A DNA stretch of 64,000 bases from Gemmatimonadota bacterium (GTDB lineage Bacteria > Latescibacterota > UBA2968 > UBA8231). Under the pieces are notes generated by a model. It worked only from the letters and a program-made list of their open reading frames with translations. It was not told the DNA's origin and made no database searches. The DNA lies in assembly GCA_018660835.1 (NCBI GenBank), contig JABJJN010000053.1:62001-126000 (forward strand). The letters run 5' to 3'. Below, in pieces: positions 40,009-48,970 of this stretch (positions are counted from its first letter, which is position 1; every line of letters begins with the position of its first letter). The translations under genes and the position numbers were made by a program.

Positions 40009-42327
40009 CTAGTCTGAACGACCCTCGAGTAGCTGCAAAAGGGCCGGTAGGAGAGTGACTGCTGTGATGAAGGCGCAACCCAGCCCAAGAAGAGATACGG
40101 TGCCGATCCAGTAGAGGGCTGGATGGTGTGCGGGCACAAGCCCGGCAAATCCAACCATCGTCGTCAGCGTCGTGGCCATTAGAGCCACGCCCGTCGTACG
40201 TAACACGAGACGTAAGGAACCTGGTCCAGCCTCGCGGTAGCGATGGAAGATGTGGACCGCATTGTCTATGCCCATCCCGATGACGGTGGGGAAGGCGACC
40301 ATGTTGTAGATATTGATGCGGAAGTCGAGCACATACATCAGCCCTGTGACCCAGGCGAGGCCCGTGAGCAACGGCGTCAGAACCAATGCGGCACTCAGGA
40401 CACTGCCAAGGTCGATGACGAGGACGATGCTGACGACCAAAAGGGTGACGATCACGGCGATCACCGCGTCATCCAGCATCAACTCGAGCATCTCCGCAAA
40501 GATGATATGGGGGCTCGACGCATAGAACGTACCCAGGTCTGTCTCGATCACCTTCACCTCGCGAGCGAAATTGATCGAATTGCGACCATCACGGAGAGGC
40601 ACAGAGGCATTGATCTGGACGAAGTTGAGGATCTCACCCTCTTTGCTCGAGAAACTCTTCGTCATGTCCTCGGGCAAGTCAGTCAGTTCCAGGATTCTCA
40701 CATCAAGATACTGGCGCAGCGAGTCGACACGCGTGCGGTCGTTCTCATCAAGCAAATCGAGATTGGCGTCGATCATCTGCCGTAAATCAGCGATCAAAGT
40801 GAGCTTCTGTTCCTGGTCGGCGGGGAGGAAGGAGTAGACGCTCTTCACTGACAACACCGTGGAGCTATCACCCCGCTCTGCCTGAATCCTCTTCACCTCC
40901 GCAACGACGGCCAAGGCCTCAGCGCGGCTCTCCGTCAGCACAATGGCGGGCGAGCGCGTCTCCTTCAACTTATCGGGCAGACTCGCCTGCGGCCCCGTTT
41001 GGACCACTTCGGGCTTAAGCTTCTTGAAGTCATACTCAAAGCTCAGATCGTTGACGTGGTAGAGGGAGAACGCAGTCGCCAATATGCCAAGCAGCAAAGT
41101 CAAATGGGGGATTGGATAACGCCCCCGGCGAATCAGGTGTTCGGGAACACTCGCCTGCTGCAACCGCACGAGACCAAACCGTTCGGCAAGGACGATGAAG
41201 GCAGGGCAAACGACGACCATCGCCACCAATGAAAACAAGATTCCTGTACCAACGATGAAGCCGAACTCGCTGAATCCTTTGAAATCAGAGAACAGGAGAG
41301 AGAAAAAGGCGACCGCCGTCGTCAGGGCTGTCGTTGTCAGCGCGCTGCCCGTGTGGCACACCGTCTCAATGAGAGCCTGCTCGATATCCAGTCCGCGTCT
41401 GCGTGCCTCGCGATAACGGGCGAAAATGTGAATCCCAAAGTCGATACCCAAGCCAAAGAGGATGGCGAAGAGGCAGACCGTAATCTGGTTCAGATTGCCG
41501 ATGACGAGATACGTGACGCCAAAGGTCCACGACAGACTCATCAGCAAAGGGAAGACGATGAACAGCGGCGAAAGCAGTCTGCGGAAGTACAGGCTGATCA
41601 GCACCAGCACGCCGAGAAAGGCATACATCGCCGTCGACTTCAGATCCTGCAACACGATCGTGTACTGGGTCGAGGCGTTCTTGAAGCTGCCCTTGTACGT
41701 TACCTCGAGGGACGGATGATAACGCTGGGCGTCGAGGGATTCGATCGTTCGATCGAGGAGTGCCAGCAGGCGCTTGGTAAACTTCACATCCGTAATGACG
41801 CCGGTCGGATATAACCGGAGGATGACACCGTTGCCCTCCTCCGTCAGGTAGTAGTTGCGGTCATAACCGCTGAGTTCGTAGTGCTCATATTTCGCTTCGA
41901 TGTCGCTGACATCGAGAGGATCTTCCTCGTCCTCCTCGAATCCCATATAGAAGGGATTTTTCTTCAGCGTCTCCAGTTCGATTTTGTCGGCGACACGACC
42001 ATGTAAATCGCTCAGATCATCCAGATCCATATAGAGGAGTCGATTGTGGCTGAGAAACTCCATCTCTGCCGTACGACCCCGAATGACTGAATTGATCAGC
42101 GGGCTGCCCTCGAGAGAGTCGGCGAGGGCATGTATGAAATCGACGCAAGCAGAGAGTTCTTCACCGTTGACGATCACCATCAGTGGGCCGATGCCACCAA
42201 CGCGCTCCTTGATCCGATTCAGTTCACTGACGCTGATGTAGTCGTCAGGTAGAAGATTTGCCGAATCGGCCTTGATCTTGAGTTGTGCAGCGAAGGAACC
42301 GGCCACGAGAGACAGCACCAAAGACAC
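40009..42327 (-). CDS. MMPL/RND-superfamily transporter (HpnN-like)
   Basis: 772 aa with duplicated RND architecture: 'LFGLGIDFGIHIFARYREARRRGLDIEQALIETVCHTGSALTTTALTTAVAFFSL' and 'IGMGIDNAVHIFHRYREAGPGSLRLVLRTTGVALMATTLTTMVGFAGL'; the true start is probably upstream at a non-canonical codon (see findings). Confidence 0.93.
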   Translation of the reverse strand: MSLVLSLVAGSFAAQLKIKADSANLLPDDYISVSELNRIKERVGGIGPLMVIVNGEELSACVDFIHALADSLEGSPLINSVIRGRTAEMEFLSHNRLLYMDLDDLSDLHGRVADKIELETLKKNPFYMGFEEDEEDPLDVSDIEAKYEHYELSGYDRNYYLTEEGNGVILRLYPTGVITDVKFTKRLLALLDRTIESLDAQRYHPSLEVTYKGSFKNASTQYTIVLQDLKSTAMYAFLGVLVLISLYFRRLLSPLFIVFPLLMSLSWTFGVTYLVIGNLNQITVCLFAILFGLGIDFGIHIFARYREARRRGLDIEQALIETVCHTGSALTTTALTTAVAFFSLLFSDFKGFSEFGFIVGTGILFSLVAMVVVCPAFIVLAERFGLVRLQQASVPEHLIRRGRYPIPHLTLLLGILATAFSLYHVNDLSFEYDFKKLKPEVVQTGPQASLPDKLKETRSPAIVLTESRAEALAVVAEVKRIQAERGDSSTVLSVKSVYSFLPADQEQKLTLIADLRQMIDANLDLLDENDRTRVDSLRQYLDVRILELTDLPEDMTKSFSSKEGEILNFVQINASVPLRDGRNSINFAREVKVIETDLGTFYASSPHIIFAEMLELMLDDAVIAVIVTLLVVSIVLVIDLGSVLSAALVLTPLLTGLAWVTGLMYVLDFRINIYNMVAFPTVIGMGIDNAVHIFHRYREAGPGSLRLVLRTTGVALMATTLTTMVGFAGLVPAHHPALYWIGTVSLLGLGCAFITAVTLLPALLQLLEGRSD

Positions 42328-42406
42328 CAGAAGAATGCTGATGTGGTGATGATAGACGTAGTGAACGATTCGTTCGTATGTGCGCCTGGAAGCTCTGATG
42401 GAGGGT

Positions 42407-48155: not shown

Positions 48156-48970
48156 GCGAGCCTCGTGGAGGTGAGTGTGGTGTTTTTTACATGGTGGGGA
48201 CCAAAACGACCAGGATTTCTGCGCACCCGGGCAAGATCCTGAGGTGTATCGATATCCTCCCAGGGAAGGGAACCGATATCGACGCATTGGATGCCGATGC
48301 CACTGCTGGCGAGTCTCTGGATGCCATCCAGATAGTAACTGGTCATAGCCCGTTCGCTCTGCACGGCTTCCTCTAGTATGCCATGCAATTGTGCCACGCC
48401 CTGTCCACGAAACGACAGCAGACCGACAGATTCGGCGTCGGTCTGTTGTACGGGCAGGTCCTTGCCGATCGCCTGTAAGCGACCAGAGCGGATGCAGACC
48501 TTCATGTCATCGTCGTCGTAAGCCAACTTCTGTTGCACCAACAATTGGCAATCGGCGGCGACCGGTTTCAACAAAAAAGAGGGAAGATCCGGGTGAAAGA
48601 CATTGTCGCCATTGATGATGAGCAGATCATCATCCATTTCACCACGCGCCGCCCACAAGCTGATGAGATTGTCAGCGACAGCATAGAACGGGTTGTACAT
48701 GACCCGCACCCGTGAATCGCCTGCCGTGGTCGCACGTATCTGGTCAAAGCCGAATCCTGCCACCACCACGATGCGATCAACCCCGGCAGCCGACAGCAAT
48801 GAGATCTGTCGCTGCAGGATGGTCACCTGTGGCTCAAGTGCCAACAGGCATTTGGGCGTCTGGCGCGTGTAAGGAAGCAACCTTCGTCCACGTCCGGCGG
48901 CCAGAATGAGGGCTTTCAACGGGGGCACTCGCAACGCTTGGGCATCGGGGGGGGGTAGTTTCGGCCGCAC
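48152..48970 (-). CDS. Nucleotidyltransferase (LicC/PntC-like sugar- or choline-phosphate nucleotidyltransferase)
   Basis: 'LKALILAAGRGRRLLPYTRQTPKCLLAL', 'YNPFYAVADNLISLWAARGEMDDDLLIINGDNVFHPD'; start uncertain (48970, 48928 or 48919). Confidence 0.87.
   Translation of the reverse strand: MRPKLPPPDAQALRVPPLKALILAAGRGRRLLPYTRQTPKCLLALEPQVTILQRQISLLSAAGVDRIVVVAGFGFDQIRATTAGDSRVRVMYNPFYAVADNLISLWAARGEMDDDLLIINGDNVFHPDLPSFLLKPVAADCQLLVQQKLAYDDDDMKVCIRSGRLQAIGKDLPVQQTDAESVGLLSFRGQGVAQLHGILEEAVQSERAMTSYYLDGIQRLASSGIGIQCVDIGSLPWEDIDTPQDLARVRRNPGRFGPHHVKNTTLTSTRLA

What the first reader, a model, noticed from the sequence alone, without database searches (positions are those of the whole stretch)
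40009..48970. Candidate undescribed lipid-headgroup synthesis and envelope-export operon (NTase / CDP-alcohol PT / UPF0104 / TolC / MlaC-DUF3047 / MlaC / MMPL)
Seen: seven co-directional genes with start/stop overlaps or near-zero gaps (GTGA at 48152-48155, ATGA at 46746-46749, 1-nt overlap at 45709, ATGA at 44360-44363, TAA-A-ATG at 43055-43049). Families: nucleotidyltransferase, CDP-alcohol phosphotransferase with exact catalytic signature, LPG-synthase-TM/UPF0104 protein, TolC channel, two MlaC-like lipid carriers and an HpnN-like MMPL pump. Known: UPF0104/HpnL, MlaC/HpnM and MMPL/HpnN proteins occur in hopanoid-associated loci. Inference: here the same trio is wired to CDP-alcohol headgroup chemistry and a TolC duct, giving a module that would activate a polar alcohol, attach it to a lipid, flip it and move it to the outer membrane or outside. 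I know of no described system with this gene set.
Basis: partly seen in the sequence, partly recalled or inferred. Interest (0 to 1): 0.82.

Follow-up and report, generated by a model that had tools for sequence, protein, structure and literature searches.

The report
CDP-inositol lipid synthesis and export operon
A conserved seven-gene operon of an uncultured Latescibacterota-type bacterium most likely makes an inositol-headgroup lipid from CDP-inositol and carries it across the cell envelope; the synthesis half resembles clusters already proposed in other bacteria, but I found no description of its linkage to a dedicated TolC/MlaC/RND export route.

Summary
In detail: seven co-directional genes with 4-, 4-, 1- and 4-nt overlaps and tiny gaps, bounded by a terminator and a syntenic tRNA-Gly. 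Gene order is kept in 11 relatives at 35-89% protein identity. In one genus the block is split into a synthesis locus and an export locus, both retained; in sister families the same parts are reshuffled. Inositol-1-phosphate synthase is in 26/26 genomes of the family and 28/30 genomes of other phyla with the enzyme. It is not a hopanoid system (Hpn cut-offs failed, no squalene-hopene cyclase). The DUF3047 protein is a lipid-carrier fold fused to a carbohydrate-binding-like jelly roll. Best reading: CDP-inositol-dependent synthesis of an inositol lipid, UPF0104 flipping, then MMPL/MlaC/TolC export; the acceptor and transport steps are inferred. A similar synthesis cluster was proposed in Bacteroidetes (PMC9246714), so this is a new variant of a known kind. 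Against it: families with the live fusion lack inositol-phosphate synthase, and the 6-TM enzyme architecture suggests a polar acceptor.

The parts
48152..48919 (-).
   Evidence: PF12804/PF00483; profile aligns end to end with IPCT 2XME, 4MND, T. maritima 4JD0 and AEP cytidylyltransferase 6PD1, N-half with LicC 1JYK; start from orthologues
46746..48155 (-). CDP-alcohol phosphotransferase with degenerate IPCT N-domain (DIPPS type), 469 aa
   Evidence: PF01066; best NCBIfam NF041135 88 bits; PDB profile 4MND E 8e-24; model pLDDT 89, top Foldseek match 4MND E 3e-15; catalytic signature invariant
45709..46749 (-). UPF0104 / LPG_synthase_TM flippase-like protein
   Evidence: PF03706 E 2e-30; TIGR03476 HpnL 150.5 bits vs cut-off 195.65, TIGR00374 over its cut-off
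44360..45709 (-). TolC-type outer-membrane channel (OEP x2) with N-terminal signal-like segment
   Evidence: PF02321 E 9e-36, 2 stretches
43053..44363 (-). MlaC-like domain fused to DUF3047; DUF3047 predicted as carbohydrate-binding-like jelly roll
   Evidence: PF11249; hhalign to MlaC 95.5%; AF2 pLDDT 86.6; Foldseek MlaC/Ttg2D and CBM30/CBM16; homologues with PF05494+PF11249
42407..43051 (-). MlaC-type periplasmic lipid carrier
   Evidence: PF05494 E 6e-25; only MlaC hit in the genome; HpnM 59.7 bits vs cut-off 160.1
40009..42380 (-).
   Evidence: PF03176 E 3e-44; HpnN 289.9 bits vs cut-off 751.85; N-terminus from relatives
39913..39940 (.). intrinsic terminator-like hairpin, 12 bp stem, T run on both strands; downstream end of operon
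   Evidence: sequence
39807..39882 (+). tRNA-Gly(GCC) on the opposite strand bounding the operon; found in the 10 relatives scanned
49253..50002 (+). NT2: divergent second LicC-like nucleotidyltransferase; conserved neighbour, membership uncertain

Best explanation
The operon encodes CDP-inositol-dependent synthesis of an inositol-phosphate-headgroup envelope lipid and its export. Inositol-1-phosphate synthase (MIPS, encoded elsewhere) makes inositol-1-P. NT1 makes CDP-inositol. The DIPPS-type CDP-alcohol phosphotransferase moves phospho-inositol onto a lipid or glycolipid hydroxyl. UPF0104 flips the product to the outer face of the inner membrane. The MMPL pump, MlaC and the MlaC-DUF3047 protein (acyl-binding carrier plus headgroup-binding jelly roll) carry it through the periplasm, with TolC as outer-membrane partner. 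Supported by sequence, structure and distribution: the two-enzyme CDP-polyol chemistry, the link to MIPS, and the functional linkage of the synthesis and export halves. Inferred: inositol as the actual substrate in this organism, the lipid acceptor, flipping, and export direction.
For: NT1 and CDP-AP match IPCT-DIPPS by sequence and CDP-AP by fold, with 4MND first. Families f2, f3, f4 and f10 have the two as one protein with an intact IPCT motif (4MND E 2.5e-48); genus g3, whose synthesis locus lacks NT1, has a separate IPCT-type gene. MIPS is in 26/26 genomes of the window's family and 28/30 genomes of other phyla with the enzyme. In Saprospiraceae, MIPS occurs in 5 of 6 enzyme-positive against 38 of 194 enzyme-negative genomes, Fisher p 0.0019. 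CDP-AP and UPF0104 are adjacent in Latescibacterota and Bacteroidota (L034, L036). In g3 the block is split into CDP-AP/UPF0104/DUF3047/GT4 and TolC/MlaC-DUF3047/MlaC/MMPL, both retained. MlaC is in 49/50 CDP-AP genomes and 0/15 without. DUF3047 is CBM-like and fused to an MlaC-like domain. Precedents: CDP-inositol as headgroup donor (Jorge 2015, cited in PMC9246714) and the Bacteroidetes cluster with NTase, CDP-AP and LPG synthase.
Against: Families f2, f3, f4 and f10 carry the live IPCT-DIPPS fusion but no MIPS (0/24), so the alcohol may not be inositol there, or inositol is imported. The CDP-AP model looks 6-TM, which PMC4634129 associates with soluble acceptors; lipid-acceptor enzymes usually have 3-4 more helices. 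NT1 scores slightly better against phosphocholine and AEP cytidylyltransferases than against IPCT. MIPS is not linked to the operon. In Dadabacteria and related lineages NT1-CDP-AP occurs without transporter genes. The presence/absence pattern within the phylum is largely a few phylogenetic events. No biochemistry exists.
Confidence: 0.5

Rival explanations
1. Same module, different headgroup: NT1 activates another alcohol phosphate (choline-P, ethanolamine-P, 2-aminoethylphosphonate, glycerol-P or a sugar alcohol) and the product is a different exported phospholipid or phosphonolipid.
For: Best PDB profile matches of NT1 are LicC (89.5 bits) and the AEP cytidylyltransferase PntC (83.5), ahead of IPCT (73.9). 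Sister families with the fused enzyme lack MIPS. AF2299, a close structural relative, accommodates a CDP-glycerol donor (PMC4634129).
Against: LicC aligns only over the N-terminal half while IPCT aligns end to end. The partner CDP-AP is clearly DIPPS type. MIPS co-occurs in the window's family, in other phyla and in an independent clade.
Confidence: 0.25
2. The two enzymes make the soluble osmolyte di-myo-inositol phosphate (as IPCT-DIPPS does in hyperthermophiles); the downstream flippase and transporter genes serve another lipid and are merely co-transcribed.
For: The enzymes' closest characterised relative makes di-inositol phosphate phosphate. 6-TM architecture fits a soluble acceptor. IPCT-DIPPS was proposed as an osmolyte pathway in hadal archaea, which are not thermophiles (PMC7265257). 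NT1-CDP-AP stands without transporters in Dadabacteria.
Against: CDP-AP overlaps UPF0104 by 4 nt in two phyla, MlaC/MMPL follow CDP-AP also in the reshuffled f3/f4 loci, and the single MlaC is missing where CDP-AP is missing. Several carriers are fresh-water or groundwater genomes by their record titles, where this osmolyte should have little use (inference).
Confidence: 0.15
3. A hopanoid or other polyisoprenoid transport locus (HpnL/HpnM/HpnN) that has picked up headgroup enzymes.
For: Best NCBIfam hits of UPF0104, MlaC and MMPL are HpnL, HpnM and HpnN.
Against: All three are well below the curated cut-offs. No squalene-hopene cyclase in the genome; across the phylum only one strong hit in 65 genomes.
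Confidence: 0.04

Closest known systems
IPCT-DIPPS of Archaeoglobus fulgidus (PDB 4MND) and NCBIfam NF041135
   Same: Cytidylyltransferase domain followed by 6-TM CDP-alcohol phosphotransferase; full-length fold match, exact catalytic signature, MIPS in the genome.
   Different: In the window the active cytidylyltransferase is a separate gene and the fused one is degenerate; scores are far below the NF041135 equivalog cut-off (580); genes are joined to a flippase and exporters.
Putative alternative inositol-lipid cluster of Bacteroides vulgatus/Prevotella (PMC9246714)
   Same: NTP transferase proposed to make CDP-inositol, CDP-alcohol phosphotransferase, an LPG-synthase-family protein nearby, MIPS in the genome.
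   Different: There MIPS and a HAD hydrolase are clustered; export genes TolC, MlaC, DUF3047 and MMPL are not reported. That pathway too is unconfirmed by experiment. Direct sequence comparison with those proteins was not run here.
CDP-inositol route to dialkylether glycerophosphoinositol lipids (Jorge et al. 2015, known here only through its citation in PMC9246714)
   Different: Described for hyperthermophiles; export machinery not mentioned in the citing text; paper not held, details not checked.
Hopanoid transporter set HpnL/HpnM/HpnN
   Same: Same three protein families (UPF0104, MlaC, HAE3 RND).
   Different: All below HpnL/M/N cut-offs, no hopanoid cyclase, TolC and DUF3047 added.
AmeABCD of Castellaniella defragrans (PMC6394551)
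   Same: An HAE3 RND pump encoded with an outer-membrane protein and two periplasmic proteins.
   Different: Outer-membrane protein is DUF1302, periplasmic ones are LolA-type (DUF1329) and COG4447; implicated in monoterpene tolerance.
Mla phospholipid transport (MlaC)
   Same: MlaC-fold periplasmic carrier, twice.
   Different: Partner in this operon is an MMPL pump rather than the MlaFEDB ABC complex; one carrier bears a DUF3047 jelly roll.

Membership tests
CTP:inositol-1-phosphate cytidylyltransferase (IPCT) | NTase catalytic motif (LAAGxGxRL...PK) and Asp residues | tested here: met
   Invariant LAAG.G.RL.P.T....K, N.D and D...DL positions in 20 NT1 sequences
CTP:inositol-1-phosphate cytidylyltransferase (IPCT) | End-to-end homology with solved IPCTs, including the KIRVEDGRVAKIGK segment | tested here: met
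   2XME 1.3e-19, 4MND 8e-19, 4JD0 2e-21
CTP:inositol-1-phosphate cytidylyltransferase (IPCT) | Better match to IPCT than to other small-alcohol cytidylyltransferases | tested here: inconclusive
   LicC 89.5, PntC 83.5, IPCT 73.9 bits
CTP:inositol-1-phosphate cytidylyltransferase (IPCT) | Source of inositol-1-P (MIPS) in the genome | tested here: met
   G000:C70, E 1e-103; 26/26 of the family
CTP:inositol-1-phosphate cytidylyltransferase (IPCT) | Activity on inositol-1-P | not testable with these tools
   needs enzyme assay
DIPPS-type CDP-alcohol phosphotransferase | Signature DxxDGxxAR...GxxxDxxxD | tested here: met
   invariant in 32 homologues
DIPPS-type CDP-alcohol phosphotransferase | Nucleotidyltransferase-fold N-domain joined to 6-TM domain | tested here: met
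   AF2 model, 4MND top Foldseek match over 465 alignment columns
DIPPS-type CDP-alcohol phosphotransferase | N-domain catalytically intact (bifunctional enzyme) | tested here: not met
   motif lost in the window's family; intact in f2, f3, f4, f10
DIPPS-type CDP-alcohol phosphotransferase | NCBIfam NF041135 curated cut-off (580 bits) | tested here: not met
   88 bits
DIPPS-type CDP-alcohol phosphotransferase | Product di-myo-inositol phosphate phosphate | not testable with these tools
   needs assay
Phosphatidylinositol-phosphate synthase (PIPS, CDP-DAG donor) | NF045883 cut-off 170 bits | tested here: not met
   44.6 bits, lower than the IPCT-DIPPS model
Bacteroidetes alternative inositol-lipid cluster | NTase + CDP-alcohol transferase + LPG-synthase-family gene together | tested here: met
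   cluster described
Bacteroidetes alternative inositol-lipid cluster | MIPS and HAD hydrolase in the cluster | tested here: not met
   MIPS unlinked; no HAD among the seven genes
Hopanoid HpnL/M/N set | Scores above TIGR03476/03481/03480 cut-offs | tested here: not met
   150.5/195.65, 59.7/160.1, 289.9/751.85 bits
Hopanoid HpnL/M/N set | Squalene-hopene cyclase in the genome | tested here: not met
   none in G000; 1 strong hit in 65 genomes of the phylum
Tripartite RND efflux pump | Membrane-fusion adaptor encoded with pump and TolC | tested here: not met
   no adaptor family found among the seven genes
MlaC lipid carriers | MlaC fold/profile | tested here: met
   PF05494; hhalign and Foldseek for the fused domain

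The most novel reading that the evidence does not exclude
A dedicated trans-envelope route for an inositol phospholipid or inositol-phosphate glycolipid in diderm bacteria: CDP-inositol chemistry hard-wired to a TolC + HAE3 RND + MlaC system in which an MlaC-jelly-roll chimera (DUF3047) recognises headgroup and acyl chains together and serves in place of an adaptor, placing the lipid in the outer membrane or releasing it.
Probability: 0.35. Interest if true: 0.78.

Novelty: new variant of a known kind. Interest (0 to 1): 0.6.

Why it matters
Inositol lipids are rare in bacteria (PMC9246714) and, to my knowledge, no transport route to the outer membrane is known for them. A conserved operon that couples CDP-inositol chemistry to a flippase, two MlaC-type carriers, an HAE3 pump and TolC would give a directly testable export system, a first role for DUF3047, and a case of TolC working with lipid carriers instead of a usual adaptor. 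The split/fused pattern of IPCT-DIPPS across families also shows how this enzyme pair has been re-used outside hyperthermophiles.

Tried and rejected
Hopanoid reading: rejected (cut-offs failed, no cyclase). PIPS-type (CDP-DAG donor) reading: rejected because DIPPS/AF2299 match far better and a cytidylyltransferase accompanies the enzyme. Inclusion of the downstream large TPR/FG-GAP/ASPIC gene (36561-about 39760): rejected, a terminator and an opposite-strand tRNA-Gly lie between. Second NTase NT2 as operon member: unresolved; in several relatives it pairs with a CDP-alcohol paralogue that has lost the second half of the catalytic signature. Promoter scan: no more sites than shuffles, uninformative. 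Literature searches for the gene set: no paper describing the whole set. Jorge et al. 2015 could not be read. The protein-representatives search was not used.
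Full report
OBSERVATION. The seven genes are as described. Junctions: NTase/CDP-AP 4 nt overlap, CDP-AP/UPF0104 4, UPF0104/TolC 1, TolC/DUF3047 4, DUF3047-MlaC 1-nt gap, MlaC-MMPL at least 7 nt up to a non-canonical start. 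The block ends at an intrinsic terminator (39913-39940) followed by a tRNA-Gly on the other strand (39807-39882), a neighbour also found in the 10 relatives scanned. Two gene starts need revision: NT1 is better started at TTG 48919, as in L003 and L026; MMPL homology continues upstream of GTG 42327, where relatives have ATG and the window has none.

CONSERVATION. A profile of the CDP-alcohol protein found 79 distinct loci in named genomes and matches in 60 of 65 genomes of the phylum, 50 of them strong. In the window's family the complete order NT1 > CDP-AP > UPF0104 > TolC > DUF3047 > MlaC > MMPL recurs in L003, L004, L007-L011, L016, L018, L020 and L026; protein identities to the window run from 35 to 89%. 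Exceptions: L005 and L012 are cut by contig ends; L013 lacks a detected MMPL; L006 shows the CDP-AP without the rest, and genome G053 has CDP-AP but no MlaC hit.

Genus g3 has two loci: CDP-AP/UPF0104/short DUF3047/GT4 glycosyltransferase, and TolC/MlaC-DUF3047/MlaC/MMPL. Families f3/f4 have the order (UPF0104)/TolC/CDP-AP/MlaC/MMPL followed by an unknown gene, a GMC oxidoreductase and a GFO/IDH/MocA oxidoreductase. MlaC, the marker of the export half, is present in 49 of 50 genomes with a strong CDP-AP and in 0 of 15 without (Fisher 8e-14, but lineages are not independent). So synthesis and export halves are evolutionarily linked even where they are not adjacent.

CHEMISTRY. By sequence the CDP-alcohol protein is closest to IPCT-DIPPS (4MND) and AF2299, and the best NCBIfam model is the bifunctional inositol-1-P cytidylyltransferase/CDP-inositol phosphotransferase, at 88 bits against 44.6 for PIP synthase. 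An AlphaFold model (mean pLDDT 89) has 4MND as first Foldseek match, E 3e-15. Its N-terminal 200 residues keep the nucleotidyltransferase fold but have lost the catalytic motifs; the adjacent NT1 has them. In families f2, f3, f4 and f10 a single protein holds an intact IPCT motif and the phosphotransferase (f10 against 4MND E 2.5e-48). Genus g3, which lacks NT1 beside the degenerate enzyme, has a separate gene; the one read (L177) has classical IPCT motifs and hits of similar score occur in most g3 genomes. This split/fusion pattern is the strongest sign that NT1 and CDP-AP act in sequence.

INOSITOL. MIPS (PF07994) is in the genome, on another contig and not in an inositol cluster. It is in all 26 genomes of the window's family and in none of the other 39 of the phylum. 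In 30 genomes outside the phylum that carry the enzyme, 28 have MIPS. In 200 Saprospiraceae, 5 of 6 enzyme-positive genomes have MIPS against 38 of 194 others, p = 0.0019. Against this, f2-f4 and f10 have the live fusion without MIPS (0 of 24), so the alcohol there is uncertain. NT1's own best PDB scores (LicC, PntC, IPCT in that order among named substrates) do not fix the substrate, though IPCT aligns over the whole length while LicC aligns over half.

LIPID AND EXPORT. UPF0104 follows CDP-AP with a 4-nt overlap also in Bacteroidota (L034, L036). The DUF3047 protein is an MlaC-like domain (hhalign 95.5%, E 1.5e-8; Foldseek matches to MlaC and Ttg2D; Pfam MlaC assigned in many homologues) joined to a jelly roll resembling carbohydrate-binding modules (CBM30, CBM16). 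MMPL belongs to the HAE3/HpnN side of the RND superfamily. Hopanoids are unlikely as cargo. HAE3 pumps encoded with an outer-membrane protein and two periplasmic proteins have a precedent in AmeABCD (PMC6394551), with different families. The caution is PMC4634129: 6-TM CDP-alcohol enzymes use soluble acceptors and lipid-acceptor ones usually have extra helices; the window enzyme looks 6-TM. A polar headgroup of a glycolipid as acceptor would reconcile the two, and GT4 genes do sit beside CDP-AP in g3, f10 and Calditrichaeota; this is inference.

WHAT IS KNOWN. PMC9246714 proposed, without experimental confirmation, an alternative inositol-lipid cluster in Bacteroides/Prevotella made of MIPS, an NTP transferase making CDP-inositol, a CDP-alcohol transferase and a HAD hydrolase, with an LPG-synthase homologue nearby, and cites Jorge et al. 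2015 for CDP-inositol as headgroup donor. The synthesis half of the window operon is thus of a proposed kind. I found no paper with the export half attached (open-licence papers only).

VERDICT. Confidence: CDP-polyol chemistry coupled to envelope lipid export about 0.75; the full inositol-lipid reading about 0.5.

Noticed in passing
window 49253-50002 (+); L007 5520-7480, L018 6794-8783: Divergent LicC-like nucleotidyltransferase NT2; in several relatives it is paired with a CDP-alcohol paralogue (c43) that keeps DxxDGxxAR but has lost the second two catalytic Asp, so probably inactive or changed in function. The window has NT2 but not c43 beside it.
   Followed up: partly
window 42327-42399 (-): MMPL has no canonical start codon where relatives have ATG; mutation, rare start or sequence error.
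   Followed up: partly
window 36561-39760 (-): Conserved large TPR/FG-GAP/ASPIC-UnbV protein with a lipobox-like start next to the operon in many relatives, separated by terminator and tRNA-Gly; the long ORF reading through the tRNA is spurious at its N-terminus.
   Followed up: partly
L032, L038-L078 (Dadabacteria and other lineages): NT1-CDP-AP pair sits directly after panB-panC-panD (pantothenate genes) in most of these genomes, without the transporter genes; often followed by an Asp/Asn beta-hydroxylase.
   Followed up: no
L113 13515-16708 and equivalents in f3/f4: An unknown 267-aa gene, a GMC oxidoreductase and a GFO/IDH/MocA oxidoreductase follow MMPL; possible modification of the lipid headgroup.
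   Followed up: no
L080 87-2430: CDP-alcohol transferase, HAD hydrolase and NTase in a row in a deltaproteobacterial MAG, resembling the Bacteroidetes alternative inositol-lipid cluster.
   Followed up: no
L077, L079: Three CDP-alcohol paralogues in tandem with a BadF/DUF2229 activase-like protein and a DUF3047 protein.
   Followed up: no
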